Shown: positions 13,600 to 54,572 of the stretch, in pieces | Layout: the number at the start of each line of letters is the position of its first letter | Position numbering within the stretch: position 1 is the stretch's first letter | NCBI RefSeq assembly: GCF_016612865.1 | Contig: NZ_JAENZZ010000002.1 | Location: forward strand, 806,001 to 870,000 | Direction: 5' to 3' | DNA length: 64,000 nt | From: Blastococcus sp. TML/M2B | GTDB taxonomy: Bacteria > Actinomycetota > Actinomycetes > Mycobacteriales > Geodermatophilaceae | Program-made: the position numbers and the translations under genes | The notes under the pieces: generated by a model | The model's input: the letters and a program-made list of their open reading frames with translations, nothing else | The model's database searches: none | Told to the model about the DNA's origin: nothing

Positions 13600-14994
13600 A
13601 TGAGCTCGTCCATGCACCGCTCGCACCGGGTGGCCGGAGCACTCGTCGGCTCCGCCGTGGGTGACGCGCTCGGCGCGCCCTTCGAGTTCGGCCCGGCCGG
13701 GGCCTTCTCCGCCCGCTTCCCGGCGCCGGCCCGCGGCGCGAAGACCGAGATGTGCGGCGGCGGGTCGCTGGGCTGGGCGCCGGGCGAGTTCACCGACGAC
13801 ACGCAGATGGCGCTGCTCGTCGCGTCGTCCCTGGTCGACGCCGGCCGGCTGGACCCGGCCGACGTCTTCGACCGGTTCGCGCAGTGGGCGGCGGCCGACC
13901 CGCCGGACATCGGCAACCAGACGCGGGCGGTGCTGGGCTCGGGCCGGCCGTGGTCGTCGGCCGCGTCCGAGCACTTCGCGCGGTCGGGCCACGCGGCGGG
14001 CAACGGCTCGCTGATGCGCGCGACGCCGTCGGCGATCTGGTTCGCCCGGTTCGGGACCGCGGCCACCACGGACGCCGCCCGGCAGCTCTCGGCGCTGACC
14101 CACGGCGACCCGTCCGCCGGCGAGGGCTGCGCGGTGCACGCCGAGCTGATGCGGGTGGCCCTGGACGGCGGCGACCCGCTGGCCGCGATCCCCGCGGCGC
14201 TGGAGCTGGTGGCACCCGAGCACCGCGAGCGGTGGGCGACGGTGCTCGCCCCCGACTGGACGCCCGATCAGGCGACCGAGTCGAACGGCGCGGTGTGGCC
14301 GACGCTCGGTCAGGCGGTGTGGGCGCTGCGGCACGGGTCGGACTTCGCCGAGGTGCTGCGCCTGGTGATCGACCTGGGCGGGGACACCGACACGGTCGCG
14401 TGCGTGGCCGGCGGGCTCGCCGGGGCCGTGCACGGGATGGGTGGGATCCCGAGCCGGTGGGCGTCGGTGGTGCACGGCCGGGTGCCCGGGTTCGCGGAGA
14501 AGCTGTGGCGGCTGGCGGACCTGCAGCAGCTGGCGGCCGCGCTGGACGGCGGGGTGCAGCAGAGCTACGACCCGGGCGTGATCCCGCGGATCGGCCCCGA
14601 GGAGGTGCTGCCGGGCATCTGGGCGGCGAACCTCGACGGCGCGCGGTACAGCGAGCAGGACTTCGCCGTCATCTCGCTGTGCCGGCTGGGCGAGCCGTTC
14701 GAGCACGAGCTGCAGCGGATGGCGTACGTCGCCGACAACGAGCACAACAGCGACCTGGACGTCGTGCTCGCCGACGTGCTGGAGGACATGGCGGCGCTGC
14801 GCGCCGAGGGACACCGGTTGCTGGTGCACTGCCACGGCGGCGCCTCGCGGACCGGGCTGGTGCTGCGCGCCTGGCTGATGCGTACCGAGGGGATGACGGC
14901 GGAGGAGGCGACGGCGCACGTCGCCGCGCGCTGGCCGCACCTCGGGTTGTGGAACGCCAGCTTCACCCAGGCCCTGGACCGGCTCGCCCGCTGA
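13600..14994 (+). CDS. ADP-ribosylglycohydrolase fused to a dual-specificity-type phosphatase
   Basis: A 464-residue two-domain enzyme. Residues about 5-310 form a DraG/ARH-type ADP-ribosylglycohydrolase: GDALGAPFE, metal-binding FTDDTQM and GGDTDTVACVAGG. Residues about 325-464 form a cysteine phosphatase with the P-loop VHCHGGASRTG (C-x5-R, as in PTP/DSP enzymes). Fusions of ARG with this phosphatase class are known in NAD/ADP-ribose metabolic or conflict gene sets. An ARPP-1-like protein and an ADP-ribosyltransferase lie 10 kb to the right. ATG 13600 follows GGAGG. It overlaps the convergent 146-residue gene by 32 bp. Confidence 0.9.
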   Translation: MSSSMHRSHRVAGALVGSAVGDALGAPFEFGPAGAFSARFPAPARGAKTEMCGGGSLGWAPGEFTDDTQMALLVASSLVDAGRLDPADVFDRFAQWAAADPPDIGNQTRAVLGSGRPWSSAASEHFARSGHAAGNGSLMRATPSAIWFARFGTAATTDAARQLSALTHGDPSAGEGCAVHAELMRVALDGGDPLAAIPAALELVAPEHRERWATVLAPDWTPDQATESNGAVWPTLGQAVWALRHGSDFAEVLRLVIDLGGDTDTVACVAGGLAGAVHGMGGIPSRWASVVHGRVPGFAEKLWRLADLQQLAAALDGGVQQSYDPGVIPRIGPEEVLPGIWAANLDGARYSEQDFAVISLCRLGEPFEHELQRMAYVADNEHNSDLDVVLADVLEDMAALRAEGHRLLVHCHGGASRTGLVLRAWLMRTEGMTAEEATAHVAARWPHLGLWNASFTQALDRLAR

Positions 14995-19011: not shown

Positions 19012-20658
19012 TCAGCCCGGCGACGAGTGGGTGAGTCGCCGGACGACGGCCTCGCCGCCGACGCGGCGGATGAGCTCCAGGTCGCCGCAGACGACCAGCA
19101 GGTCGCGGGCGCGGGACAGTCCGACGTAGAGCATCTCCCGGGCGCGGGACTCGTCCCGGAAACCGTTCACCGCCAGGACGACGGCCGGCCGCTCGAGCCC
19201 CTTGAACCCGAGGACGTGCCCGTAGAACACGTCCTCGCCGTCCCAGAAGGACGACCAGTACGAGTCCTGGCCGGCCTGCTGACGGGCCGCCTGCTCGGGG
19301 TGCCGCCGGTAGGTCGTCAGCAGCGCGACGGCGTCGTACGGGTAGCCGTCGTCGAGCAGCCCCTCGATGGCGTCGTCGGCAGCATCGAGGGCGTCGTCGG
19401 TCGCGCACTGGACGAAGCGCACCGGCACGCCGTTACCGCCGCGGTTCTTCATCTGCGACGTCGTCAGGCTGCCGAAGGTGCCGGCGATCTGCTTGGTGTT
19501 GCGCAGGTTCTCGGTGAGGTTGATCGGCGTCAGGGCCACCGTCGGACGCCCCTGCCGGGCGAAGACCCGCTGCCCCTCGTCGGCGAAGACGTACAGGCAG
19601 CCGTCGTCCGGGGATCGGAGCGCGGCAACCACCGCAGGCCACCAGCTCTCGGCGAAGTCCTGCGCCTCGTCGATCACGATGGCGTCGAAGCGCTCCGCTT
19701 CGGGCAGCTGCCCGGCCAGGGCCACCATCTCCTGGGGCAGGAGCTCCTCCCAGTACGGGCTGTCGTCGTCCGATCCGGCGGGCACGCCCCACGCGATTCC
19801 GAGGTAGTGGAAGGTGCCGACGTAGGCGGGCTGCTGCTTGGCCGGCCACGTGGCGACCCGGCGCTTGAGGAACTCGGCGAGGCCGCGCGAGTAGCACATG
19901 ACGGCGACCCGCTGACCCTCCGCGGTGAGCCGCCGCGCCTTCTCGAGCGCGAGCCACGTCTTGCCCGAACCCGCGCCACCGCGGATCTCGACGCGGGAGT
20001 TGCCCTCGAGCATGTCGAGGACGCGCGCCTGGTCGCGGGTGAGCAGATCGCACTCGGCCTCGCGCTCGTGCAGGCCGGCGACCAGGTCCTGCTGCGGGAT
20101 GCCGACGCCCTGCAGGCACTCGACGAGCCGATCGACCTCCTCGGCCGTCGGTGCCGGCACGTCCTGCTCGAGCTGCCGGAGGGCCGACGCGATGCGGCCG
20201 GCGGCCCCCGGCAGGTCGGTCCGGTCGAGCACCAGCCAGCGCGGAGCGTCAGGGGCCGCGAAGTCCTCCGGCAGTGTCGTCGTGGGCAGCGCGACGAGGT
20301 GGACCATCCGCGGGTCGCCGGCGCTCCAGCGCCGGTCCTTGCGGAGGTAGTCGCGCAGCAGGTACTTGCACACCTTGGCCTGGTCGACCGGGCGGATCCG
20401 CTTGTCGATGCCGCCGCCGTGCTGGCGCCACTCCCCGTCCCGGAGAGAGACGCTGCCGCCCTTCACCTCGATGACGGCGATGCCGAACCCGGGCCAGGCG
20501 ACGATGACGTCGGCCTCGCGGTCCTCCTTGCGGTCGGTGAACCGCTGCCCGCAGACGAGGACGGCGTCATCGGGCAGCTGCTCGCTCAGCGCCTCGGCGA
20601 ACAGCCGCTCGGCGGGCGAGCCGAAGTCCGCGTCCGCCGGGAGGATGCGCGCCGTCAC
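19012..20658 (-). CDS. NERD-domain UvrD-like SF1 helicase
   Basis: The 548-residue product begins with a nuclease-related domain (NERD): EADVIVAWPGFGIAVIEVKG carries the D-x-ExK core. From about residue 190 a UvrD/PcrA-like helicase follows: Walker A GGAGSGKTWLA, DEAQDF motif II, ENLRNT, GFKGLERPAV (motif V-like) and YVGLSRAR (motif VI). Such NERD-UvrD proteins act on DNA and are common in defence islands. GTG 20658 overlaps the stop of the upstream exonuclease gene (GTGA), so the pair is translationally coupled. Confidence 0.85.
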   Translation of the reverse strand: MTARILPADADFGSPAERLFAEALSEQLPDDAVLVCGQRFTDRKEDREADVIVAWPGFGIAVIEVKGGSVSLRDGEWRQHGGGIDKRIRPVDQAKVCKYLLRDYLRKDRRWSAGDPRMVHLVALPTTTLPEDFAAPDAPRWLVLDRTDLPGAAGRIASALRQLEQDVPAPTAEEVDRLVECLQGVGIPQQDLVAGLHEREAECDLLTRDQARVLDMLEGNSRVEIRGGAGSGKTWLALEKARRLTAEGQRVAVMCYSRGLAEFLKRRVATWPAKQQPAYVGTFHYLGIAWGVPAGSDDDSPYWEELLPQEMVALAGQLPEAERFDAIVIDEAQDFAESWWPAVVAALRSPDDGCLYVFADEGQRVFARQGRPTVALTPINLTENLRNTKQIAGTFGSLTTSQMKNRGGNGVPVRFVQCATDDALDAADDAIEGLLDDGYPYDAVALLTTYRRHPEQAARQQAGQDSYWSSFWDGEDVFYGHVLGFKGLERPAVVLAVNGFRDESRAREMLYVGLSRARDLLVVCGDLELIRRVGGEAVVRRLTHSSPG

Positions 20659-22112: not shown

Positions 22113-23282
22113 TCAGTGCGGCTCGACGATGCGGGCCAGTGCGCGCTCCAGCGCCGCTATCGCCGCCCGCCGCTCCACCGGTTCGGTGAGCGCGAGCAGC
22201 GGCACGTGCACATGGTGGGTGGTCGAGGAGGTCCGCTCGAGCCGGAAACCCGGGAACTCCGCGCTGACGGCGACGGCGTCCTCGGGGTCCAGGCCGACGG
22301 AGAGCGTCTGCGGACGCGCATAGGCGGCGACCCGCTCCTCCCCCAGCGGCCGCACGGCCACGTAGTGCGGCATGACCGACAGCGTCAGTGGGATCCGCTC
22401 GCCGAGCTCATCCACCAGCCGCTGGATGTGCGGATGCACCTTGACACCCGGCAACGCCTGGAACGACCGTGCGGGACCGGTCGGGCTCTCGGCCCGACCC
22501 GTCCGGGTGCGGTCCTTGCGAACCGGCCGGACGCCGAGCACCTCGACCGCGTCCCGACTGTCGGCGGAACGTCGGTAGAGCTCAGCGGGCTTGCCCATCA
22601 CGCCGGCCCCAGGCTCCTTGCGGGCCGACTGGCCCGTGGGCTGGATGAGGCCCCTGCCGACCATGTAGCGCCGGAACGTGTCGATCGACGGGCGGGCCTC
22701 CCCCGCACCCGGCCGCGGCGCGACGGCGTCGTGCAGCGCCTGCAGGGCCTTGAGCGTGAACAGCTCACCGAGCAGGTGCGCCGGGTCCGGCTGGAGCGCG
22801 TAGTCCTGCCGCACGCGGTCGACGGCGAGGCGCACGATCTCGTCGTGGTCGAAGGGCTGCCCGGCGGCGTCCTCGACCGGCACCACCCGCACGTCGGGGC
22901 GGTTACCGAGCACCGGACCGACGTCCTCGGCGAGCAGGAGGACGGCATGGGCGACGGAGAGCACCCAACCGCGGTCGTCCCGGTCGGGATGGTCGAACAC
23001 GTGCAGCTGCATGGGACGCGTCCCCTGGAGGCCGGCCTTCTCCGCGAGTGAGCGGAGCACGGCGTTGGCGAGCGTCTCCCCCTCGTGCAGGAAGGTGCCG
23101 GGGAGCGCCCACTCCCCCTCGTGCGCGCCGCCGTCGGGCCTTCGGTGCTGCACGACACCGAGGGAACCCGTGCGCACGTCGACGACAAGGACGGCCGTGT
23201 CGACCGCGACGGACGGCCGGGGGTAGTCGGTCAGTCCGCGGTTCGACCGGTCGTGGTGACGCCGCACGCTCTCGTTGCTCAC
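22113..23282 (-). CDS. NrtR-like Nudix transcriptional regulator with extra C-terminal domain
   Basis: A 389-residue protein. Residues about 25-165 form a Nudix domain whose Nudix box is degenerate: PGTFLHEGETL then VLRSLAEKAG, where REUxEE is expected, so hydrolysis is unlikely. A winged helix typical of NrtR follows: LFTLKALQALHDAV, IDTFRRYMVGRGLIQPTG and GKPAELYRRS. NrtR proteins sense ADP-ribose-type ligands and repress NAD genes. About 110 further residues (IPLTLSVMPHYVAVRP, HHVHVPLLAL) look like a DUF5655-type domain. GTG 23282 seems nearly leaderless. It is divergent from the ARPP-1/ART/HD operon and is its probable regulator (inference). Confidence 0.8.
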   Translation of the reverse strand: MSNESVRRHHDRSNRGLTDYPRPSVAVDTAVLVVDVRTGSLGVVQHRRPDGGAHEGEWALPGTFLHEGETLANAVLRSLAEKAGLQGTRPMQLHVFDHPDRDDRGWVLSVAHAVLLLAEDVGPVLGNRPDVRVVPVEDAAGQPFDHDEIVRLAVDRVRQDYALQPDPAHLLGELFTLKALQALHDAVAPRPGAGEARPSIDTFRRYMVGRGLIQPTGQSARKEPGAGVMGKPAELYRRSADSRDAVEVLGVRPVRKDRTRTGRAESPTGPARSFQALPGVKVHPHIQRLVDELGERIPLTLSVMPHYVAVRPLGEERVAAYARPQTLSVGLDPEDAVAVSAEFPGFRLERTSSTTHHVHVPLLALTEPVERRAAIAALERALARIVEPH

Positions 23283-23355
23283 ACGGTTGACATTACCGGC
23301 ATGTGTGCGTCAAAGTCTGATTACAAGCAAAAGTGCTTCGAAGTAGGGAGACGCC
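23283..23355. promoter_or_regulatory. Divergent promoter/operator between the Nudix regulator and the ART operon
   Basis: This 73-bp gap is markedly more AT-rich than its surroundings. It holds TTGAC (23287-23291) and GTCAA (23309-23313) as an inverted pair, the first also serving as a good -35 (TTGACA) for the rightward operon. A second inverted repeat, AAGCA-AAAG-TGCTT, lies at 23325-23338. These are candidate operators for the NrtR-like regulator. AGGGAGA (23345-23351) is the ribosome binding site of the next gene. Confidence 0.5.
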
Positions 23356-24207
23356 ATGACCTCCTCCACCACCAGGCTGCACGTCGGGCAGGGCACGCAC
23401 CGCGGTCCGCTCACCGTCTTCCCGATCTGGACGGACGCGCCGTCCACGCCCCGCGGGTACCTGACGGGGGCGTCCGCACCTGTCGACGTCGCGGAGCGCG
23501 CCGGCACGCCCGCCGTGGACCAACTGGTGCTCACCAACCGTGGCGAGCGCCCGGTTCTCCTGCTCGCCGGCGAGCTGCTCGAGGGCGGCTGGCAGACGCG
23601 GGCGCTGACCGCCACGACGCTGCTGGCGCCGGGCACGCCGTCCGTCGAGCGTGTGGTGTGCGTCGAGGAGGGCCGGTGGGGCGGCGACCTCGCCCACGCG
23701 CGGAAGGCGCGGCGCGTGCCCTTCGCCGTGCGCGCCCGGTTCGACCGCCCCGACGCCCAGCAGGCGGTCTGGGAGCGCGTCAGCCGGTACGACGCCGTCG
23801 CAGGGCCGTCGCACACCGGGTCACTGGCCGACCGGCTGGACCGCACCGCCCCCGCGGCCCGTGACCTGACTCGCGGGCTCCGCCCCCTCGCCGGGCAGCG
23901 CGGGCTCCTCGTCGGCATCGCCGGCCGCCCCGCTTGGCTGGAGGTGTTCGACAGCGGGCGGACGCTCGCCGAGCACTGGTCGGGTCTCCTGCACGCGGCA
24001 GCCCTCGACGGCCTGGGCAGATCGCCCCTCCGCACGCCGGGCGCGGCGGCACGCTCGTTCGCCGAACGTGTCGAAGGCACCCGGCACACTGCCGTCAGCC
24101 CGGCCGGTCTCGGCCGCCGGCTGTCCGGCGGCACCCATCTCCGCGTGGACGACGTCCGCTGGCACGACCGCACCATCCACCTCTCCGCCGTCCTCCAGGA
24201 GGCCTGA
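23356..24207 (+). CDS. ARPP-1-like domain protein
   Basis: The 283-residue product has the look of the ARPP-1 family (a domain named for its genomic association with ADP-ribosylglycohydrolase and rhodanese/phosphatase proteins): GPLTVFPIWTDAP, NRGERPVLLLAGELLEGGWQ and VVCVEEGRW. No catalytic motif is certain. In known contexts the family sits among NAD/ADP-ribose genes. The ATG is preceded by AGGGAGA. The stop TGA abuts the ATG of the ADP-ribosyltransferase gene, so this is the first gene of a three-gene operon. Confidence 0.72.
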   Translation: MTSSTTRLHVGQGTHRGPLTVFPIWTDAPSTPRGYLTGASAPVDVAERAGTPAVDQLVLTNRGERPVLLLAGELLEGGWQTRALTATTLLAPGTPSVERVVCVEEGRWGGDLAHARKARRVPFAVRARFDRPDAQQAVWERVSRYDAVAGPSHTGSLADRLDRTAPAARDLTRGLRPLAGQRGLLVGIAGRPAWLEVFDSGRTLAEHWSGLLHAAALDGLGRSPLRTPGAAARSFAERVEGTRHTAVSPAGLGRRLSGGTHLRVDDVRWHDRTIHLSAVLQEA

Positions 24208-25464
24208 ATGCTGTTCGACGAGGTGCGCCGCCGCGTGACCGAGAGCGTCGCCGACTGGGACGACGAGGACGTCCACCTCCGCGTGGAGGAGACCGCACGG
24301 CACCCCGTGCACGTGACCATCAGCAGCAAGCACCCCTCGACCTACTTCACCCAGCGGGTGGACCTGGCCGCCGACGGCACCGTCCACCTGCCGGCGCCTG
24401 ACGACGGCTTCACCTCGGTCACTGCGACGGGCAGCAGCGCAAGAACGGCGACCAGCACGGAGGAGGCCGCTGCGCTCATCGCGGGGGCGGTGTCGGATGC
24501 CGTCCGGGTGCTGCGGGAGCTCCAGGCCAGGAACCTCGAGTGGGCCCGACCTGCCACCCAGCCGCAGGTGACGGCCGACGACCTGGCGGCGGCGTGCACG
24601 CTCTGGCAGGGCGGCCAGAACGTCGGGTCCTCACCGGTGCGCGCGGCGGCGCGGGTGCTCAGCGGGGTCCGCCACTACTTCCACGCGGACTTCATCACCG
24701 CCTATGAAGAGAAGGCCCGGACGACGCCTGAGGTCCTGGCCGCCGGCGTGGCCCTGTTGCGGGCGGTCAACGCGGCACAGCCACAGGACGCGGACGGCTG
24801 GCCCGCCCGCGTCGGGCTCCCTGCAGGCGGGTTCGCCGGTCGGGGCATCTCGTCGAAGCCCGCCGAGGACCCGCAGATCGAGAAGCGTCTGGCGACCGGG
24901 CGGATCGAGATGCCGCTCTGGGGCGTCTCCCTCTCCCCCGACGTGGCGGCCGGCTTCGGGACGCGGTTCCTGTTCGAGCTCGTCGGTGCGTTCCCCGCCG
25001 TCCCGGCCTGGGTGCACTCGGGCATCAAGGACGAGGAGCAGGAGCTGATCACCGGCGGGCAGTACCGGGTGCTGTCGCAGGAGGAGCGCGACGGGACCAC
25101 GCACGTCCGGCTGCGCTGGATCGGCGCGAGCGGCGACAGGGTCGGCTCCGACGCGCTGCTGCTGTCCGTGCTCGGCGCCGTCTCCGACGTCATGGACAGC
25201 GAGCTGAGGCGAACCGCGGACGCCGAGACGCTGCGTCTGGGCCTGGGCCTGGGCCGCGACAACTGGGCGGAGATCACCCGGAAGGCCGAGTCGGACACCG
25301 CCAGAGTGGTCCGATATTGGGAGCTGGACGCCGACTGGAACGCCAAGGGCGACGATCCGTACACCCATGCCGCTGCCATCCGCGCGGCCTCACGGACGAC
25401 CACCGTGACGGCGGACGTCAACTCGATCGTCGCCGCCGTCCTAACGGGCAAGGAGACCCCATGA
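24208..25464 (+). CDS. ADP-ribosyltransferase (R-S-ExE type)
   Basis: The 418-residue product has an N-terminal beta/alpha region of unknown type, then an ART fold in about residues 130-290. Key signals in order: GRG with Arg212 (motif R), a SLS strand at 241-243 followed by PDVAAGFG (motif S), and DEEQELITGGQYRVL with Glu277-x-Glu279 (motif ExE). The surrounding phrases LPLWG-like MPLWGVSLSP and VPAWVHSG are typical of the fold. Such enzymes transfer ADP-ribose from NAD to protein or nucleic acid. The target is unknown. The C-terminal 130 residues may bind a partner. It overlaps the next gene by ATGA. Confidence 0.72.
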   Translation: MLFDEVRRRVTESVADWDDEDVHLRVEETARHPVHVTISSKHPSTYFTQRVDLAADGTVHLPAPDDGFTSVTATGSSARTATSTEEAAALIAGAVSDAVRVLRELQARNLEWARPATQPQVTADDLAAACTLWQGGQNVGSSPVRAAARVLSGVRHYFHADFITAYEEKARTTPEVLAAGVALLRAVNAAQPQDADGWPARVGLPAGGFAGRGISSKPAEDPQIEKRLATGRIEMPLWGVSLSPDVAAGFGTRFLFELVGAFPAVPAWVHSGIKDEEQELITGGQYRVLSQEERDGTTHVRLRWIGASGDRVGSDALLLSVLGAVSDVMDSELRRTADAETLRLGLGLGRDNWAEITRKAESDTARVVRYWELDADWNAKGDDPYTHAAAIRAASRTTTVTADVNSIVAAVLTGKETP

Positions 25465-26120
25465 CCACGACCCTCGAGACACGCGCCGAGATGGGTGCTG
25501 GGCCGCTGAGCGAGCGTTTCGACGAAGCATTGGTGTTCGCGTCCCGGCACCACCGGGAGCAGCCGAGGAAGGGCTCGCGGGTGCCGTACATGTCGCACCT
25601 GATGAGCGTCAGCTCCCTCGTGCTCGAGCACGGCGGCACCGAGGACCAGGCAATTGCCGCACTGCTGCACGACGCGGTGGAGGACGCGCCGGCGGGCCAG
25701 GGCGGCGCCGTGCTGGCCGACATCCGGTCACGCTTCGGCGATGCGGTCGCCGACATCGTCCGGGCGTGTTCGGACGGCCTGGACGCCGACGGCAACCGGA
25801 GCGGGACGTGGGCGGAGCGCAAGCGGCCCTACGTCGCCGGCCTCGCCGACAAGCCGCTCGACGCGCTACTGGTCACGGCGGCCGACAAGACGCACAACGG
25901 GCTCTGCATCGCAGCCGACGTCCGCCGGTACGGGCGGGACTTCTGGTCGACGTTCAACGCGACCCGCGACGAGCTGCTCGGGTACTACACGAGCGTCGAG
26001 CGTGCGTTGGCAGAGCGGCTGCCCGCCACCTCCATCGCCGACGCGCTGCATCGCGCCGTCACCGAGCTTCTCGCCGCCGCCGACGTCGAGCGGGGTGAGG
26101 TGCCGGCGGCGATGCCGTAG
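25461..26120 (+). CDS. HD-domain phosphohydrolase, SpoT/MESH1-like
   Basis: The 219-residue product carries an HD domain of the RelA/SpoT hydrolase type: His in PYMSHLMSV, LLHDAVEDAP (HD pair plus ED), and ADKTHNGLCIAADV. No synthetase, TGS or ACT domain is present, so it resembles small alarmone hydrolases. Its ligand could be (p)ppGpp or an ADP-ribose-derived nucleotide. ATG 25461 overlaps the stop of the ADP-ribosyltransferase gene (ATGA), so their products are made together. It may act as the detoxifying or signalling arm of the operon (inference). Confidence 0.8.
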   Translation: MTTTLETRAEMGAGPLSERFDEALVFASRHHREQPRKGSRVPYMSHLMSVSSLVLEHGGTEDQAIAALLHDAVEDAPAGQGGAVLADIRSRFGDAVADIVRACSDGLDADGNRSGTWAERKRPYVAGLADKPLDALLVTAADKTHNGLCIAADVRRYGRDFWSTFNATRDELLGYYTSVERALAERLPATSIADALHRAVTELLAAADVERGEVPAAMP

Positions 26121-28289: not shown

Positions 28290-28731
28290 AGCCGCGCTCC
28301 TTCCGTTGCGTGGTGAACGTAGTGGCCGACGGTGACGATCAGGTCGAGCGACTCGCGCTGTGGTGCCAGCGCTCATCGAGCGTCCATGGGCGTCGACAGC
28401 CTGTGCCGCACCCCTCCTGGATGTCCAAGGCCGAACCCCCGTTCGAGGAGGCAGACACAACCGCTATAGCCCCACCGCTCCCGCCACCCCTCATCGAGCG
28501 AAGTCCTGTCAATAATGATCTTGAACACGGCGGGAACTGACCCTGCCCAGCAGGTTCGCGGTCCTGGTCAGCGGCTTCTGTCGTTACCCAGCCGGCCTGG
28601 CCACCACGCGGACTGGACGACAGGACGCGGGGCCGAGCAGCAAGTCAACCTGGACGTCGCGATCCCGGGGAGCCGCTGGCCAGACGGCTACCAGTGACAG
28701 ATCTATCGATCGCGTGACCGCCGGGAGCCGC
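28290..28731. other. Intergenic region with an AT-rich patch
   Basis: No supported gene. Around 28505-28530 the sequence TGTCAATAATGATCTTGAAC is far more AT-rich than its surroundings and resembles the sort of sequence found at insertion-sequence ends. No transposase or matching inverted end was found. Confidence 0.35.
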
Positions 28732-29037
28732 ATGCCACGAGGGACGGCATCGGAGATCCGTCGCGCCGCACACGCCAATCGGCAGATTGGCTACAAGAAA
28801 CTCGCCGCACTCCTGCGAGCGCGCGGGACGGATGTCACCAAGGCTCAGGTGGCCGAGGTCCTGCGGCGAGCACAGCCGGAACGGGCAGGCGGCCAGCCGC
28901 CCAAGAAGACCAGACGGCCGGCGCTGGTGGTGAAGGTGACCGCGGCGGTGCAGGCGAGCCGGACCGTTCACGAGACACCCCTCTGCCAGTCCTGCGGGAT
29001 GCGCCTGAGCATTCACGCCATGTGCCGCTGCTCCTAG
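28732..29037 (+). CDS. Small putative DNA-binding protein with Cys-rich tail
   Basis: ATG 28732 follows GGGAG. The 101-residue product starts MPRGTASEIRRAAHANRQIG and continues YKKLAALLRARGTDVTKAQV, which has helix-turn-helix-like spacing. It ends CQSCGMRLSIHAMCRC, a possible zinc site (CxxC ... CxC). An in-frame GTG at 28714 would add six residues but has no ribosome binding site. The last 21 bp, including the stop, are tandemly duplicated just beyond. No family is recognised; it may be a remnant of a mobile element gene. Confidence 0.45.
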   Translation: MPRGTASEIRRAAHANRQIGYKKLAALLRARGTDVTKAQVAEVLRRAQPERAGGQPPKKTRRPALVVKVTAAVQASRTVHETPLCQSCGMRLSIHAMCRCS

Positions 29038-46927: not shown

Positions 46928-48793
46928 TCATGGCACCGCGTTCGCCGTAACAGCGGTCAGGTCGTCGGGGTTCCAGAGTTGCTTGGCAATATCGCGGTAT
47001 AGGTTGCCACGCTCGACGATGTCAGCCGCCTTGAACTCCTCGTGGGCGCGAAACGGCAGACCCGAGTCCTTGACGAAGGCCAAGAAGCCGGGGTTCTTCT
47101 CGTAGGCCTGGGGATCCAGACTGCCGGCAAGCAAATTCTGACTGAAGTACCTCGGACGCTTCTGCGCGTAGGTCTCGTCGTTGTAGCTCGCGTTGAACTG
47201 CTTGGGCAGCAGCAACAGGTCACCGATCCGATTCCGATGACGAGCAAAATCGGCTTCGTGGCTGAAGTCTTCGACGTGCCGCTCGGGATGATCGGCCCAG
47301 ATGTGCTCAACCTCGTACTTCACCTTCGCGCCGTTCGTGAGCTCGATGTAGTTCGACGCTTGGCCAGATTTCACGGTGATGTGATCGGTGATTCGAGCCA
47401 GGATCTTGTGGAGCTGGCTCCGGTTCTGCTGGTGGACGTACAAGCCGTCGTAGTCGAAGGACTCGTCGACCTTAAGCAGGTAGTCACGCAGCAACTTGGC
47501 CAGGTCAGGCTCGCTGAGGCCACGGATGTCGCGCATGACCGTGAACATGGCATATTGCATCGTTGAGTACGCCGTCGCGCGGAAGTTCCATATGCGGCGC
47601 GCGAGGAGGATGTCGGTGAACCGGCCGACCAACTCCAGCTTTCTGTCGATGGCGGCTGCGTTGTCATCGACTCGGAGCGGCGCCAAGAGCAGCTGATTCT
47701 GCAGTGTGAACCCGAGGTCGGCGTTGAAGCGGATGAAGCGCAGAGCGCTGTCTGGCTGGAAGGGCCCCGTCGATGCGGTAAGGATGCGCGCGTAGTGGTG
47801 GCTGTAGAAGTCGAGGTCACGGACCACAAAGTTATAGAAGTCGTCGCGCGCCTTCAGGCCAACGCTATCGTTGGCGCCGCGGAGCCAGCGGTGAAACTCG
47901 GTGCCGATCCGATCCCAGTCCTCGGGACGCGCTCCCTTCCTGCGCTCACGAATCTTGGTCGAGTACTGGCTTCGCAGCCACGTCTTGAGGAAGTCGGAGC
48001 TGGCGTCCTCCGCCTGCTCGTCGAGGCTGCGCAGCCGTTTGCGCCACAGCTCGTTGGCCTTTGTGCGAGGCTTCCCGTCTTCCATGTTGGCGAGCAAGTA
48101 CCCCTTGAGCATGTCTGCCGGGGTGAGCTTGAGGCCGCGATCGTTCATTGTCTCGAAGATGGCGTAGGCGTCGTCGTCGCTGTACGCAGTGATCTGGACG
48201 AGCTGGACCCGGTCCTTGAGCCAATCGATGAAGAACGGGAGCGCGGCCCCCTTCAGCTCGTCAGGGAAGATTCCGTCGAGTTCCGCGTACCTGGCTACGA
48301 GCGTGTGAACTGACTCCGCTGCGTCCGAGGGCGGTTCGTATTCGCCGAACTCGAACAGGGCCTCCATGCAGTCGTTGCGGTCGGGAACACCGAGGTTAAA
48401 CGACTTCTCACCGAACTTCTCCGAGTAGATGAGCTCGTCGATGCTGACGACCTCTTCTCGCCCCTGCTGGAGACGCCGTAGGTACGTGAGGAACAGCGTA
48501 AGGCTAGTCAGCCGCTGCTGGCCATCGACAACGAAGGGCTGACTGCCTTTCTGTGAGATGATGATGGAACCGAGGTAGTAGCCGGGGTACTTGGCGACGT
48601 CCTTGCGGGCGTGGTCGGACTCATAGAGGTCGAGGAACTTGGCTGTTAGATCGGCGACGAGCTCAGCGATCTGCTTCGACTCCCACTTGTACTCGCGCTG
48701 ATAGTAGTCGATCGAGTACTTCTTCTTTTCCAAGACTTCGGCGATAGTCTTGGCAACGCCGTCAATCGTCCGGTCAATATCGGTCCCAGTCAT
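46928..48793 (-). CDS. DUF262/DUF1524 (GmrSD-like) protein
   Basis: The 621-residue product starts with a DUF262 domain: IDYYQREYKWESKQIAELV and FVVDGQQRLTSLTLFLTYL, where DGQQR is the ParB-like nucleotide-using motif. Later it has YAIFETMNDRGLKLTPADML. The C-terminal DUF1524 HNH-like nuclease shows KYEVEHIWADHPERH and RNRIGDLLLLPKQFNASYND. GmrSD of E. coli, built the same way, cleaves glucosylated hydroxymethylcytosine DNA in an NTP-dependent manner. ATG 48793 lies 5 bp after the Res stop, with GGTAGGGACG as the ribosome site. It is the last gene of the five-gene operon. Confidence 0.87.
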   Translation of the reverse strand: MTGTDIDRTIDGVAKTIAEVLEKKKYSIDYYQREYKWESKQIAELVADLTAKFLDLYESDHARKDVAKYPGYYLGSIIISQKGSQPFVVDGQQRLTSLTLFLTYLRRLQQGREEVVSIDELIYSEKFGEKSFNLGVPDRNDCMEALFEFGEYEPPSDAAESVHTLVARYAELDGIFPDELKGAALPFFIDWLKDRVQLVQITAYSDDDAYAIFETMNDRGLKLTPADMLKGYLLANMEDGKPRTKANELWRKRLRSLDEQAEDASSDFLKTWLRSQYSTKIRERRKGARPEDWDRIGTEFHRWLRGANDSVGLKARDDFYNFVVRDLDFYSHHYARILTASTGPFQPDSALRFIRFNADLGFTLQNQLLLAPLRVDDNAAAIDRKLELVGRFTDILLARRIWNFRATAYSTMQYAMFTVMRDIRGLSEPDLAKLLRDYLLKVDESFDYDGLYVHQQNRSQLHKILARITDHITVKSGQASNYIELTNGAKVKYEVEHIWADHPERHVEDFSHEADFARHRNRIGDLLLLPKQFNASYNDETYAQKRPRYFSQNLLAGSLDPQAYEKNPGFLAFVKDSGLPFRAHEEFKAADIVERGNLYRDIAKQLWNPDDLTAVTANAVP

Positions 48794-48798
48794 CGTCC

Positions 48799-51700
48799 CT
48801 ACCCCGTCACGAGTTCCATCAGCTTGGAGTAGCTGTCGGCGACGTCGTACTTTACTTGGCCCTCGAACTTCTTGTTGACGTCGGCGAAGAATTTCCGGGC
48901 GCATTCGATCTTCGCGTCCTCGATACCTTTCAGTTGAAGGGTAGAGAGGGAGCCCTTTGTCTCGGCGACGAAGTACACGTGCTTGACCGAACCCTCGGTG
49001 AAGGCGATCGCCCAGTCGGGATTGTAATCGCCGACCGGCGTTGGAATGAAGAACCCGCGCGGCAACTTGGCGTACACCTCTACCTCGGAGCTTGTGTCCA
49101 GCTCCGTGACGAGATCACGTTCAACCTTCGAGTCCGTGACGACGTAGTCATACACGTGCTTCTTGAGCTTCTCACCAGCCTTGGCGAAGTCCTGGGCACT
49201 CTGGTTCTCCGTGAAGATGGCCATGTCGAAGCGGTCCTCCAGCGCGTCGTACGCCAGATGCTCGACGATAACCGTGGCCTTCTGTTCGTTGATGAGTCGC
49301 GCGGCTTCGGTAATAAATTGCTCCGGATTCAGGCGGAACTTGCCGAACGTGTTCGGATTGATCCGCCCAAGGATCGCAGCGGCAGTGCGCCGAGTGAGCT
49401 GGGTCTTCTCGGTCACCTCCCCCAGCAGGTCGTACTTTACCTGAGACCCGGCAGACACTGTCGCGGTCTGGGTTGATGTCGTGGAGACGTCAAATCCGGT
49501 GCCACTGGTCAGGTCATCAGCGTCTAGCGACTCCCGCTGCCTGCCGGCCTGGACGACGTACTGCATGGCTGCGACGTTCAAGTGGGTGTCGAGTGATGCC
49601 ACGCACTTGCCCACCAACTCGGCCGAGTCGAACTCGACCTGATAGACGGCCTTGTGGTTGATCCGACTCCAGAGCTCTTGGAACTCCTTCTTCTTGAAGT
49701 TCGCCTCGTTGAGGGGGATCTTCTTGGGTTTGCGGTCGTTCGTCGGCGCGGGGATGTCGATGTACAGGGCGTCGATCAATGGCCAAACGAAGTCGATGAC
49801 CGGCTTGAGCACTTCGGACAACGGCTCCGCGAGCGACCCGGCGTCTTTGTCCTCCTTGTACTTCTGCGTCACGAGCCCGTCGTCGTCGACGTAGTCGTTG
49901 CGCACAAGGTAATTGTACAGAGCGGTTGCGAGCTTCTCGTCGACGTCGCTCTCGCCGGACTCGGTGTGGATCGTCATGCCAGTAAAGAACTTGATGCTGG
50001 CCTTTCGTGGGCGCAGCGTCGCCAGCGACTCTGCGATCTCCTTCTGCAGCCCGGCGACGAAGTCGGTATAGGACTCGTCAGTCACGACGGTCAGCTGGTT
50101 GATGGCATGCACCGTAACGGGATTGTCCATGCGCTCGCCATCTTGGTTGACGGCGAGCCTCAGTCCACGCCCGATCTCCTGCCGCCGCGAGATGGTGTTG
50201 TCACTCTTCTTGAGCATGCCCATGACGAAGACATTTGGATTGTCCCATCCTTCGCGGAGGGCCGAGTGCGAGAACAGGAACCGCACAGGCTCATCGAAGG
50301 ACAACAGACGTTCCTTGTCCCTGAGGATCAAGTCGTAGGCCGCAACGTCCTTCGACTGGCCCTTCTCATCGCCGGTCTTGTGCACGTCGCCGTCGACGAG
50401 CCGCTTGCTCTTCTTGTCGATCGAGAAATAGCCCTGGTGCACATCCCGAGCTTCGTCACGGCTGAGGTACTTCTTGTATACCGCTGTTGCGTCATCGAGC
50501 TCCAGCTCCCCGAGGACCTCCTCGACGACGGCGGCGTACTCCTCCTCGAACACTCGTGCGTAGTCGCCAAGGGTGTCCTCGCGGTCGTAGTCGCGGTACT
50601 TGGCGACCTCGTCGATGAAGAAGAGCGAAAGAACCTTGATGCCTTGGCCGAAGAGTTCACGCTCCTTAGCGATGTGCGCGCGGATGACTTCGCGGATCTG
50701 GATACGCCGCTTGGTCTGCTCGGTGACGTCGCGGTCGGCGAGCTGCCCGGCGATGACGATGTCCCCGTTGCTGAGCGTGATGGTGTCGTCGATCGCGCTG
50801 ACGTCGGTGACCACAAGGTCCTTATAGGCCTCGAGGCCGTTCGCGAGGTCATGAAGTCGGGTGCCCTGGGTGACCCGCCTGGGTTGCCGCTTGATCGGAC
50901 CGCCCTTTGTCTGCACTTCCAGTTCCACACGGGCCGTGGGCGGCTGGCCCTTCTTGACCTCGATCGCATCGAGGTAGAGGTAGGCGGTGGAGCCGGCCAG
51001 GCCCTTGACCGTAATGCCACGGACAGCGATCTTCTTTACGAGCTTCTGGTTGTATGCATCGAGGGCGTCGAGTCGGTGGACTTTGGTGTGCTCAACCTTG
51101 TGAGTGGCCGAGTAGCGCAGCACCATCAGGGCGTTGAAGCGGGACAGCGCCTCAAGCGACTTCGGAGCACCGATTTTTTGTGGCTCGTCGATGATGACGA
51201 TAGGTCTGTTCGCGCTGATCACGTCGATCGGCTTGCGAGACTGGAAGTCGTCCAGCACATCGTAGATGCGCCGGTTGTCCTTTCCCGTGGCGTTGAAGGC
51301 TTGGATGTTGATGATCATGACCTGCACGCCGGCGTCTGAACTGAATCGCTCGAGCTCATGCAGCTGCGAGGAGTTGTAAATGAAGAAGCGCGGCTTGGTG
51401 CCGTAGGTCTGCTGGAAGTGTTCAGCCGTGACGTCGAACGACTTCTTGACGCCCTCGCGAATCGCCACGGACGGGACCACGATGATGAACTTCGACCAGC
51501 CGTACCGCTTATTCAGCTCCATGATTGTCTTGATGTAAACGTAGGTCTTGCCCGTGCCAGTCTCCATCTCGACGTCGAGGTTCGGAGCGCCGAGCGCAGC
51601 CTTGCTGTCCGCAACCCTCGGCGCCAGCGGCAAGTTCCGAGATTTCTGAACCTGGTGAAGGTTGGCGAGCAACTGGGCCGCGGAGAGCTCGATCTCGGCG

Positions 51701-51882
51701 TTGCGCAGACCGGAGTCTGATGTCGTACTTGTCCCGAACAGGGCCGGCGCGGTGCTCGGCTTCACCTTGCCAGGGTCGATCCTGTAGGAGACGTCACTAC
51801 GTCGAGGTTGGCCGGAGAAGACGTCAACGACCGAGTCGACAGCGCCCGTCTGGTACAGCTGGGTCTTGAATTGAAGCTTCAT
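48799..51882 (-). CDS. Type III restriction-like Res subunit (SF2 helicase-nuclease)
   Basis: The 1027-residue product begins MKLQFKTQLYQTGAVDSVVD. The helicase has Walker A METGTGKTYVYIKTI, PIVIIDEPQKIGAPKSLEAL (motif II DEPQ), RYSATH and LREGWDNPNVFVM with EIGRGLRLAVNQDG. The C-terminal endonuclease reads NPDWAIAF then VYFVAETKGS, a PD-ExK pattern. This is the restriction subunit of type III systems, which translocates and cuts when Mod recognises unmodified sites. It starts 5 bp after the Mod gene and is visibly less GC-rich than backbone genes. Confidence 0.9.
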   Translation of the reverse strand: MKLQFKTQLYQTGAVDSVVDVFSGQPRRSDVSYRIDPGKVKPSTAPALFGTSTTSDSGLRNAEIELSAAQLLANLHQVQKSRNLPLAPRVADSKAALGAPNLDVEMETGTGKTYVYIKTIMELNKRYGWSKFIIVVPSVAIREGVKKSFDVTAEHFQQTYGTKPRFFIYNSSQLHELERFSSDAGVQVMIINIQAFNATGKDNRRIYDVLDDFQSRKPIDVISANRPIVIIDEPQKIGAPKSLEALSRFNALMVLRYSATHKVEHTKVHRLDALDAYNQKLVKKIAVRGITVKGLAGSTAYLYLDAIEVKKGQPPTARVELEVQTKGGPIKRQPRRVTQGTRLHDLANGLEAYKDLVVTDVSAIDDTITLSNGDIVIAGQLADRDVTEQTKRRIQIREVIRAHIAKERELFGQGIKVLSLFFIDEVAKYRDYDREDTLGDYARVFEEEYAAVVEEVLGELELDDATAVYKKYLSRDEARDVHQGYFSIDKKSKRLVDGDVHKTGDEKGQSKDVAAYDLILRDKERLLSFDEPVRFLFSHSALREGWDNPNVFVMGMLKKSDNTISRRQEIGRGLRLAVNQDGERMDNPVTVHAINQLTVVTDESYTDFVAGLQKEIAESLATLRPRKASIKFFTGMTIHTESGESDVDEKLATALYNYLVRNDYVDDDGLVTQKYKEDKDAGSLAEPLSEVLKPVIDFVWPLIDALYIDIPAPTNDRKPKKIPLNEANFKKKEFQELWSRINHKAVYQVEFDSAELVGKCVASLDTHLNVAAMQYVVQAGRQRESLDADDLTSGTGFDVSTTSTQTATVSAGSQVKYDLLGEVTEKTQLTRRTAAAILGRINPNTFGKFRLNPEQFITEAARLINEQKATVIVEHLAYDALEDRFDMAIFTENQSAQDFAKAGEKLKKHVYDYVVTDSKVERDLVTELDTSSEVEVYAKLPRGFFIPTPVGDYNPDWAIAFTEGSVKHVYFVAETKGSLSTLQLKGIEDAKIECARKFFADVNKKFEGQVKYDVADSYSKLMELVTG

Positions 51883-51887
51883 CTAGG

Positions 51888-53862
51888 TCAGACGGCCTTC
51901 ACATCGGTAGAAGGCGAGAGTTCCTTAAAGATCTGTTCAGCGTTGATGCGCGCGTCATCGGAATCGAAGCCAAAGTCACGAAACACGGCGCGAAGCGGCT
52001 CGCGCTTGGCGAGCGACCGCACGAGATCGGGGCTCACGTTGTCCTCGAAGCAGGCAATCAGGACATCGTCCTCCATGACCAAGACCTCGTAGCCTTCGAC
52101 GCTCTCGACGGCGATCGGTGTGGAGATGTCCAGCCCCCAGCCAAGCAGGACTTCGAAAAGCAGGTCCTCACCGGACCGTCCAGGCTTGACGCTGTGCTCC
52201 AGCTCGCTCAGCTGGAGCTGGTCGGTGTCATCAGGGGAACGTAGGACGTCCGCCATGTTGGAGGAGTCGATGCGGAACGTTCTGAAACCGATATCGAGAC
52301 GGTCTCCCGTCATGCCCGCCTCCTCGCGGAGTCTCAAGCCCACCTGCCGAATTCGTTCACGAGCGATCTGCCCGATCTGAGTGAAGCCGGCCTCACGGGC
52401 ACCGGACTTCTCCGGCGTCTCCTCGTCGAGTTGAACCATGATGAAACGCCGAGACCCGCCGTCAACGGAGTTCAAGTGCATCACCGCATGCGCGGCGGAG
52501 CCCGACCCCGCGAAGAAGTCCATGACCAAGGCTTCCCGGTCCGATCCCGTCACAACGTCGAACCATCTGGCCAGCACATACTCATCCTTGGGGTAATCGA
52601 AGACGCCTGGTCCGACAAGGCGCGCCAGACGTTGCGAAGCAGTCGTTCGGATCTGGGTGAAGACCGACTCTGCGACTTGACTGTCCAGCTCTTCGAGGAA
52701 GGTTTTCCCCCGCGGAATTTTTTTCTCGTCCTGTCCGAACTCGACGAGGCCGGCTTCAATCTGCTCCTTGAGCCTGGCTTCGGTGAACCTCCACCCGGTG
52801 CTGGGGATCGAGACCGGCCTGCCCGTCACAGGATGCAGCACCTCGAATCGCGGTCCCCCTCCTCCCGGCCAACCGAGATCCTTGTCCGCGTTGTAGATGC
52901 GGCCGGTGTCGTCGATAGTCTTGAAGCGCGTCACGGCGGCGGTGATATCCGGCTGCATGGAGAGCCACGCACGATAAATGGACGTTGCTGCGGCGGCATC
53001 ATAACCACTCTCGGCCCCACGCCTCCCGCCCCGCAGCCAACGCCTCATCGACACCGGTCTTGCGCTCTCGCCACCGAACCCCGAGCTCCTGAAGGCGCGC
53101 CTCGTTTCGCGCGTAGATCACCAGGTAGTCATGTCCGACAGAGACATAGCGAGAGTCGTTTTTGCGGCCACCCTGCCAAACGACGGTCGCGATGTAGTTT
53201 CGTTCGCCGAACGCCTGATTGGCGACCGCACGCAAGTTCGCCAATTCGGCATCGTCGATCGACATGATCAGGACCCCGTCGTCGGCCAGCAGGTTTCGCG
53301 CGAGGATTAGGCGCGGATAGATCATGCTGAGCCAGTCAGAATGAAACCGGCCATTGGACTCCGGGTTTGCATGAAGACGAGCACCCTCGTCATCAATTTG
53401 ACGAGACCGCCGTAGATATTCGGCCGTCGACTCCGCGAACTCGTCGCGATACACGAAGTCATTTCCGGTGTTGTACGGCGGGTCGATATAGATGACCTTA
53501 ACCTTGCCCAGATATGACTCTTGGAGCAGCTTTAGCGCGTCGAGATTGTCGCCCTCAATGAAGAGATTCTTCGTGCTGTCGAAGTCGACCGACTCGTCGC
53601 GAACGGGACGCAGCGTCTTCGCGATCGGAGCGTTGGCGGCAAACGCCGCCGCGCGCTTGCCTGGCCAGTCGAGCTGATAGCGCTCCCGCGGCCCCTCGAC
53701 TAGGTGATCAGAGAGTTCCTGGCGAAGCAGATCGAAGTCGACTGTACTGACCGAAATTCCTTCGGCGTCGACGGTCTCTGTGATGACGCGGGGGAACAAT
53801 TCAGCGATTTTGGCTACATTGCTCGCTGTCAGGTCCGGTGACGCCATTCGGAGCTTCTCCAC
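51888..53862 (-). CDS. Type III-like adenine methyltransferase Mod, one frameshift
   Basis: About 657 residues after correction. The methyltransferase motifs are in beta-class order: YIDPPYNTGNDF (motif IV) in the first half and DFFAGSGSAAHAVMHL (motif I) in the second. The N-terminal AKTLRPVRDESVDFDSTKNL is typical of Mod proteins. The frame breaks near 53013-53018. Removing one base from the CCCC run there restores GREAWGESGYDAAAATSIYR. GTG 53862 follows GAGGG; ATG 53847 is an alternative. Mod modifies one strand of an asymmetric site and guides Res. The broken frame, if real, would disable modification while Res stays intact, which is unlikely to be tolerated. Confidence 0.87.
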
Positions 53863-53870
53863 GTTGGCCC

Positions 53871-54572
53871 TCAGTTCGTATTGCCCGTGGCCGGGCTGTC
53901 GGTCGCACCCATAAGATCAGTGAGCGCGGCTTGCTTTGACTTCAAGGCTCGTCGTAGCTCAACCTTCCGATTGAGCTGCGGTTCGTTCCGCATTTTCCGC
54001 TCCAAGGCTGCGATCTCGCGCTCCAGCGACCGAACTGTCGTGAGTCTGTCGACCACGTCCGACACACTTTCGCCGGCGCGTGGCGCTACGGACGTAAGCG
54101 GCTGCAGCAGCGCCGTATACAGTCCCATCAGGGCGATGGCTGTGGGGAGCGGGACTCGCTCGCCGGACACAGGCTGCCATTCAGTGCTGAAGTAGGGGCC
54201 CAATTTCGGTATACCCGCTCCGAGCTGCTTGTGAGCGGCGGCCATGCGGATGGTTCCGTTCTCGCCCTCTCCCCGGCTGATTTCGAAGATGATCGGAGTT
54301 CGGACTGCCTTGTCGATCGCAGCGAGCACGCCCTCCGCGACGTCCTCTTCCTTTGCTCCGATCTCGAAGACTTGGATCTCTGGGATCTCAACGCTGCCCG
54401 GAAGGTTGATCGTCGACTCCGCGAGCTTGTAGGCCCATGTGATCCGTCGTACGTCGGAGACGAAGCGGTCCTTGATCGTGGATCCGATGCTCGCGTGCTC
54501 GTAGAACTTGGTCTTGGGAACCGTTCGGCCGAACCGGGCTGCGGCCGGCCAGCGATACAGCCGATCCCTCAT
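53871..54572 (-). CDS. DUF4391 domain protein
   Basis: The 233-residue product reads MRDRLYRWPAAARFGRTVPK, then KTKFYEHASI, FVSDVRRITWAYKLAEST and PEIQVFEI. It has a C-terminal helical, charged segment. This is DUF4391, an uncharacterised family repeatedly found between a helicase and type III-like mod/res genes. ATG 54572 overlaps the stop of the upstream SNF2 helicase gene by four bases, and Mod begins 8 bp after its stop. It is probably a structural or regulatory subunit of the same complex (inference). Confidence 0.8.
   Translation of the reverse strand: MRDRLYRWPAAARFGRTVPKTKFYEHASIGSTIKDRFVSDVRRITWAYKLAESTINLPGSVEIPEIQVFEIGAKEEDVAEGVLAAIDKAVRTPIIFEISRGEGENGTIRMAAAHKQLGAGIPKLGPYFSTEWQPVSGERVPLPTAIALMGLYTALLQPLTSVAPRAGESVSDVVDRLTTVRSLEREIAALERKMRNEPQLNRKVELRRALKSKQAALTDLMGATDSPATGNTN

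What the first reader, a model, noticed from the sequence alone, without database searches (positions are those of the whole stretch)
22113..26120. NAD/ADP-ribose module: degenerate Nudix-NrtR regulator, ARPP-1-like protein, ADP-ribosyltransferase and SpoT-like HD hydrolase
Three rightward genes are fused head to tail (TGA/ATG abutting, then ATGA) and face a Nudix-winged-helix regulator whose Nudix box has lost its Glu residues (RSLAEK for REUxEE). The middle gene shows Arg212, SLS 241-243 and Glu277-x-Glu279 of R-S-ExE ADP-ribosyltransferases. An ADP-ribose sensor, a transferase, an alarmone-type hydrolase and an ARPP-1 protein in one switch suggests a regulated ADP-ribosylation or nucleotide-based conflict system. 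I do not know this exact combination as a described system.
Basis: partly seen in the sequence, partly recalled or inferred. Interest (0 to 1): 0.85.

Follow-up and report, generated by a model that had tools for sequence, protein, structure and literature searches.

The report
ADP-ribose operon with added transferase-like gene
A soil actinobacterium carries a known kind of ADP-ribose-removing, ADP-ribose-sensing defence-like operon to which a previously undescribed, probably ADP-ribosylating enzyme has been added, so the cell may write as well as erase this chemical mark; the enzyme's identity rests on conserved residues and still needs a structure or an assay.

Summary
The four genes are real and in place (the HD gene starts at 25461). 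Most of the combination is in print: Nudix repressor, ARPP, ADP-ribosylglycohydrolase (ARG) fused to a rhodanese-type phosphatase, and alarmone-type HD phosphatase belong to the ARG-centred systems predicted in PMC9503650. New is the third gene (24208-25464): no match in Pfam, PADLOC or PDB sequences, relatives found only in Geodermatophilaceae. Its centre keeps R212, S241, E277 and E279 (R-S-ExE) in 7 of 7 sequences, but AlphaFold models of it are too poor (pLDDT mostly below 50) to show or refute an ADP-ribosyltransferase fold. It lies directly before the HD gene in 13 of 15 loci and is decayed in 8 of 15; the HD gene stays intact in 6 of the 7 decayed loci that have one. Best reading: a lineage-specific variant of the ARG system with its own transferase, a writer-eraser pair under an ADP-ribose-sensing repressor.

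The parts
22113..23282 (-). NrtR-type repressor: degenerate Nudix sensor + winged helix + C-terminal domain of unknown family
23283..23355 (.). divergent promoter/operator region (TTGACA near its start, by eye); a spaced inverted repeat recurs in several relatives but was not significant in the window itself
23356..24207 (+). ARPP-1 protein; Q80 and C102 invariant in 17 of 17 aligned
24208..24552 (+). orphan protein, N-terminal helix-sheet-helix domain (residues 1-115)
24553..25131 (+). orphan protein, central R-S-ExE ADP-ribosyltransferase-like region (R212, S241, E277, E279; residues 116-308)
25132..25464 (+). orphan protein, C-terminal helix-sheet-helix domain (residues 309-418) and stop codon
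25461..26120 (+). SpoT/small-alarmone-hydrolase-like HD protein, HDxxED and DK.HN motifs intact
13612..14994 (+). ADP-ribosylglycohydrolase fused to a DSP/rhodanese-type phosphatase; the presumed eraser, apart from the operon in this genome
19012..20658 (-). NERD-UvrD helicase found near the operon in many relatives (syntenic marker, perhaps not part of it)

Best explanation
A lineage-specific variant of the ARG-centred ADP-ribose conflict system. Shown: an NrtR-like repressor faces an operon which in relative G198 reads ARPP - ARG/phosphatase - 154-aa gene - ART-like gene - HD hydrolase (G213 lacks ARPP; G281 has another gene in place of the 154-aa one); in the window ARG is missing from the operon and a solitary ARG lies 8.4 kb before ARPP. 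Inferred: the operon is off until ADP-ribose rises, which releases the catalytically dead Nudix repressor. The ART-like protein, with two small flanking domains that may hold it or its target, transfers ADP-ribose from NAD to a host or phage target and so slows growth or phage replication. ARG removes the adduct (antidote). The phosphatase, ARPP and HD process the released sugar nucleotides; the HD protein, being SpoT/MESH1-like, may take the 2'-phosphate from NADP(H) or phospho-ADP-ribose or hydrolyse an alarmone. The ART-like gene is the costly part and is often lost.
For: Operon order and junctions in relatives. In 112 family genomes ARPP occurs in 19, NrtR in 33, HD in 27, the ART-like protein or remnants in 14 (15 matched; G258 dropped as too short); HD in 13 of these 14 against 14 of 98 others, NrtR in 11 of 14 against 22 of 98, ARPP in 8 of 14 against 11 of 98 (not corrected for relatedness). 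Motif residues invariant. Purifying selection on the central domain: dN/dS 0.28-0.35 in 4 comparisons. Catalytic-type residues invariant in ARG-phosphatase, ARPP and HD, and the Nudix box degenerate in all 27 aligned. ADP-ribose releases the mycobacterial NrtR, whose Nudix motif is also degenerate, from DNA (PMC6800001, passages). SAH/Mesh1 enzymes cleave NADPH as well as alarmones (PMC9765508, abstract). Repeated decay of the ART-like gene with HD kept.
Against: The ART fold is not shown: no Pfam, NCBIfam, PHROG or PDB support, hhalign with T4 ModA/ModB gives nothing, and the models of the centre have pLDDT mostly below 50. The motif with loose spacing arises in 0.7-1.7% of shuffles and was written after seeing the sequence. 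G233 has ART-like gene + HD without NrtR, ARPP or ARG beside them, and G113 has a short form without HD beside it. NrtR-ARG-HD loci without an ART-like gene exist in several genomes, so the system does not need it. Nothing here shows toxicity, defence or a target.
Confidence: 0.5

Rival explanations
1. The operon only repairs: as proposed for ARG-centred systems in PMC9503650, it removes ADP-ribose put on host molecules by phage transferases, and the orphan protein is an accessory (an inactive ART-like reader, or a chaperone of modified proteins) rather than a writer. (Overlaps with the last rival, so the odds do not add to one.)
For: All other parts match the published predicted system; the gene's flanking domains are small helix-sheet-helix folds, the kind of shape that paper assigns to TY-chaperones (this assignment is my inference); many loci do without the gene.
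Against: R, S and both Glu of the motif are kept in 7 of 7 catalytic regions, which a mere binder would not need; the gene decays often while its neighbours stay, more like a costly effector than a helper.
Confidence: 0.22
2. The orphan protein and the HD hydrolase are a toxin-antitoxin-like pair that merely lodges in the ARG operon: the orphan makes a toxic nucleotide (for example an ADP-ribosylated or phosphorylated one) and the HD protein destroys it.
For: HD gene directly downstream in 13 of 15 loci, ATGA overlap in the window, and ART-like gene + HD alone in G233; [quoted passage not shown]
Against: HD also sits beside ARG and NrtR without any ART-like gene in other genomes (G211, G236, G239, G152), and the HD gene stays intact in 6 of 7 loci after the ART-like gene decayed, so its main partner looks like ARG.
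Confidence: 0.15
3. The orphan centre is not an ART; the R-S-ExE match is chance, and the gene is an accessory protein of unknown kind.
For: No profile or structure support anywhere.
Against: Only four Arg, four Glu and four Ser of the region are invariant in six sequences and the motif residues are among them.
Confidence: 0.25

Closest known systems
ARG-centred ADPr-counteracting conflict systems (Viruses 2022, PMC9503650; section 3.8 read in full, other passages)
   Same: ARG, fused R-P phosphatase, Nudix-HTH negative regulator, ARPP, alarmone-type HD phosphatase, variable accessory genes, actinobacterial occurrence
   Different: that set was picked for the absence of a coupled ART; here an ART-like gene lies inside the operon of some Geodermatophilaceae, and in the window ARG is outside the operon
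DraT-DraG type ART-ARG pairs (as mentioned in PMC9503650)
   Same: putative writer next to an ARG eraser
   Different: orphan writer without sequence kinship shown, plus repressor, ARPP and HD
DarTG / CmdTAC (PMC11618068, abstract only; DarTG from search listings)
   Same: bacterial ADP-ribosylation toxin under control of partner proteins; CmdTAC includes a chaperone
   Different: no macrodomain or NADAR match among the four operon proteins; different genes and a transcriptional switch
NrtR NAD regulons (PMC6800001, passages)
   Same: Nudix-HTH repressor with degenerate Nudix motif
   Different: no NAD-synthesis family among the proteins scanned here
Small alarmone hydrolases / Mesh1 (PMC9765508, abstract)
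   Same: HD protein with HDxxED motif
   Different: embedded in an ADP-ribose operon

Membership tests
ARG-centred ADPr conflict system | ADP-ribosylglycohydrolase in the neighbourhood | tested here: met
   in the window 8.4 kb before ARPP, inside the operon in relatives such as G198, G213, G281
ARG-centred ADPr conflict system | coupled R-P/DSP phosphatase | tested here: met
   DSPc 3.3e-12 in the same polypeptide; C407 and R413 invariant in 30 of 30 aligned
ARG-centred ADPr conflict system | Nudix-HTH regulator | tested here: met
ARG-centred ADPr conflict system | ARPP with conserved Cys and Gln | tested here: met
   PF20208 5e-61; C102 and Q80 invariant in 17 of 17 aligned; that these are the paper's Cys and Gln is my inference
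ARG-centred ADPr conflict system | no genomically coupled ART (selection criterion of the authors) | tested here: inconclusive
   an ART-like gene is coupled, but its fold is not shown
R-S-E ADP-ribosyltransferases | Arg, Ser and ExE in order and conserved | tested here: met
R-S-E ADP-ribosyltransferases | ART fold | tested here: inconclusive
   AlphaFold pLDDT mostly below 50 in the centre; no useful structure match
R-S-E ADP-ribosyltransferases | profile match to a known ART family | tested here: inconclusive
   none found; ARTs diverge strongly, so absence is weak evidence
Small alarmone hydrolase / SpoT HD | HD_4 domain with HDxxED and downstream D..N | tested here: met
   PF13328 6e-18; H46, H70 D71, E74 D75, D142, N146 invariant in 21 of 21 aligned; residue roles recalled
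NrtR | ADP-ribose binding and DNA release | not testable with these tools
   -
DarTG | macrodomain or NADAR antitoxin beside the ART | tested here: not met
   no such Pfam match in the four operon proteins

The most novel reading that the evidence does not exclude
A self-contained, ADP-ribose-switched writer-eraser immunity system: a new ART family, boxed in by two small flanking domains, is the effector; ARG is the antidote; the HD hydrolase regulates NADP(H)/phospho-ADP-ribose for it; and the dead-Nudix repressor turns the product ADP-ribose into a feed-forward signal. This would turn the published view of these operons (countering foreign ARTs) around for this lineage.
Probability: 0.3. Interest if true: 0.75.

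Novelty: new variant of a known kind. Interest (0 to 1): 0.5.

Why it matters
The ARG/ARPP/Nudix operons have a predicted function, removal of ADP-ribose put on by phage enzymes; the listings of my searches showed no experimental test of it. A natural variant that may carry its own transferase, with relatives in which that gene has decayed while neighbours stay, gives ready-made gene sets to ask whether these operons write, erase or both, and whether ADP-ribose is the signal.

Tried and rejected

Relatives elsewhere: none in IMG/VR (33, seeded by short peptide patterns), plasmids, phages or, apart from the window itself, in 396 genomes of the phylum (48). The class-wide HD search gave HD proteins at 39-51% identity in 22 other genomes; of the 23 loci examined besides the window (about 1.5 kb of flank each), none had the ART-like gene, one had an ARG piece and one an NrtR beside the HD gene (84).

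Operator: a 10-6-10 inverted repeat recurs in G198, G213, G219, G248 and G281, reached by 6 to 46 of 200 shuffles; of the 20 regions examined the others, the window among them (best repeat reached by 161 of 200), do not show it as their best repeat (68). Not claimed as a site.

The idea that the window's ARG belongs to the operon and moved away was rejected: in the ARG tree it nests among ARGs of the same genus that have no NrtR, ARPP, HD or ART-like gene within the 1.5 kb examined (92).

Row dropped before counts: G258 (27 residues, E 5e-4). Literature searches: 15, 16, 23, 74, 75, 96, 97, 128; the paper I recalled as first describing some of these families was not held.
Full report
What is there. 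The window is bases 806001-870000 of contig C2 of a 4.1-Mb genome. Genomes counted as its genus or family include named Blastococcus, Geodermatophilus and Klenkia records (I equate G213, G198, G248, G113 and G219 with L014, L015, L016, L017 and L013 because contig lengths or coordinates agree), so the host is a Geodermatophilaceae actinobacterium, probably Blastococcus (inference). The four genes of the finding are present. The Nudix-winged-helix gene is 22113-23282 on the minus strand; ARPP 23356-24207, the orphan gene 24208-25464 and the HD gene 25461-26120 follow on the plus strand without gaps.

What the parts are. ARPP-1 is a firm Pfam match (5e-61); the HD protein matches HD_4 (6e-18); the regulator matches NUDIX (2.3e-9) and, below cut-off, the NrtR winged helix. 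Among the family's gene-called proteins with over 85% coverage, residues that look catalytic are kept: ARPP Q80 and C102 in 17 of 17, HD motif residues in 21 of 21, ARG-phosphatase C407 and R413 in 30 of 30; the REUxEE part of the Nudix box begins R-S-L in 27 of 27 regulators, so catalysis looks lost in all of them. In M. smegmatis NrtR a degenerate Nudix motif goes with no detectable hydrolysis and ADP-ribose-induced release from DNA (PMC6800001, passages).

The part that was missed. An ADP-ribosylglycohydrolase fused to a dual-specificity-type phosphatase lies at 13612-14994. In relatives with the operon such a gene stands inside it: NrtR facing ARPP - ARG/phosphatase - 154-aa gene - ART-like gene - HD in G198; G213 has no ARPP, and G281 has a different gene between ARG and the ART-like gene. 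A homologue of the window's ARG (E at most 1e-60) is found in 87 of 112 family genomes, and in a tree of 53 ARGs the window copy nests among copies of its own genus without operon partners in the 1.5 kb examined. So the window's operon lacks its own ARG, and the resident solitary ARG, 8.4 kb before ARPP, may serve.

Known or not. PMC9503650 (section 3.8, read in full) predicts ARG-centred immune systems with R-P phosphatase, Nudix or WYL repressor, ARPP, alarmone-type HD phosphatase and chaperones, and proposes that they undo ADP-ribosylation by phage enzymes; the authors looked for ARG neighbourhoods without a coupled ART. The window's system is of that kind in all parts but one. I found no description of an ART inside such an operon in my searches, which cover open-licence papers only and were mostly seen as listings.

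The orphan gene. It encodes 418 residues without Pfam, PADLOC or PDB sequence match (the weak NCBIfam lines are far below their cut-offs, and the PDB lines have E of 0.4 or more). Relatives were found only in Geodermatophilaceae: a match in 15 of 112 family genomes, of which I drop G258 as too short; five public contigs, all of that family; the six matching genomes among 200 of the order include one outside the family, G037, with 61 residues and a stop, which I do not count; none besides the window in 396 genomes of the phylum, none in plasmids, phages or IMG/VR. In six sequences the central region has only four invariant Arg, four Glu and four Ser, and these include R212, E277, E279 and S241; with G248 added, the four stay invariant in 7 of 7. 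Central-domain dN/dS is 0.28-0.35 in four comparisons with the window, against 0.36-0.79 for the N-terminal and 0.35-0.55 for the C-terminal domain and 0.18-0.30 for the HD protein. In G113 the central region alone occurs, after a different N-terminal part. AlphaFold with 4 sequences models residues 1-111 and 314-415, with short dips, as small helix-sheet-helix domains with fair confidence and fails on the centre; a second model of the centre has mean pLDDT 42. The order of elements in the poor models (four helices, strand before the Arg, strand before the Ser motif, strands after ExE) is what I recall of ARTs, but at that confidence it is no evidence. Structure searches with the centre gave nothing. 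I put the chance that it is an ART near 0.7.

Co-occurrence and decay. Among 112 family genomes, HD is found in 13 of the 14 with the orphan gene or a remnant and in 14 of 98 others (Fisher p 7e-9); NrtR 11 of 14 against 22 of 98 (7e-5); ARPP 8 of 14 against 11 of 98 (3e-4); all 19 ARPP genomes have NrtR (from; relatedness not corrected; in G113 the HD gene counted is about 10 kb away and 60% identical). There are 15 loci (two in G219). Full length and open: 5 (G000, G198, G213, G281, G233). Short: 1 (G113). Split by contig ends, state unknown: 1 (G219 C20). Decayed: 8 (G219 C8 by two stops, G170, G248, G146, G057, G268, G269, G215). The HD gene lies directly downstream in 13 of 15 (not G113, G215) and is intact in 6 of the 7 decayed loci that have it; in G219 C8 it matches only residues 1-188, with a gene that looks like a transposase overlapping its end. 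In G146 a deletion has removed most of ARG and most of the orphan gene together. Against a simple story: G233 keeps the orphan gene and HD with no NrtR, ARPP or ARG beside them (a partial ARG lies on another contig), and NrtR-ARG-HD loci without the orphan gene exist (G211, G236, G239, G152).

How it most likely works. Inferred: the repressor keeps the operon low and lets go when ADP-ribose rises. The orphan protein, if a transferase, modifies a target; ARG strips the mark and yields ADP-ribose, which feeds the switch; phosphatase, ARPP and HD process products. SAH enzymes cleave NADPH as well as alarmones (PMC9765508, abstract), so the HD protein could act on NADP(H) or phospho-ADP-ribose next to an NAD-consuming enzyme; this is my proposal, untested. 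Repeated loss of the orphan gene with neighbours kept fits a costly effector. The rivals are a purely repairing operon with an accessory orphan, an orphan-HD toxin-antitoxin-like pair, and a chance motif; the tests between them are listed.

Verdict. Observation confirmed; interpretation partly right; system largely known; the added ART-like gene makes it a new variant of a known kind, of moderate interest until its fold or activity is shown.

Noticed in passing
window 46928-57832: Defence island: GmrSD-type restriction protein, type III restriction enzyme, type III methyltransferase matched by two separate neighbouring ORFs (51888-52958 and 52999-53862), DUF4391 protein, and an HKD+Snf2 helicase.
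   Followed up: partly
window 28714-29037; L166 7412-7708: Small proteins that look alike by eye (similar N-terminal part, Cys-containing tail ending CRCS) occur near the window operon and next to the decayed orphan gene of G269.
   Followed up: no
L014 9531-9989; L016 9516-9980; L011 10228-10692: A 152-154-aa gene (no Pfam match for the L014 copy) between ARG and the orphan gene resembles the C-terminal domain of the window's Nudix regulator, which shorter NrtR relatives lack.
   Followed up: partly
L047 11823-12659; L049 13074-13907: A protein of about 278 aa starting with a zinc-ribbon-like CxxC motif lies in or beside the operon in G281 and G057.
   Followed up: no
L174, L175 (G219 contig C20): Both ends of a 19-kb contig lie inside the orphan gene, in the same orientation, as if the contig were circular or a repeat had broken the assembly.
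   Followed up: no
L051 9432-10320 (G200): In a same-genus relative ARPP and ARG survive only as neighbouring partial matches, another decayed form of the operon.
   Followed up: no
window 19012-20658: NERD-UvrD helicase near the Nudix gene here and in many relatives; best PADLOC match is the NERD helicase of reverse-transcriptase defence systems.
   Followed up: partly
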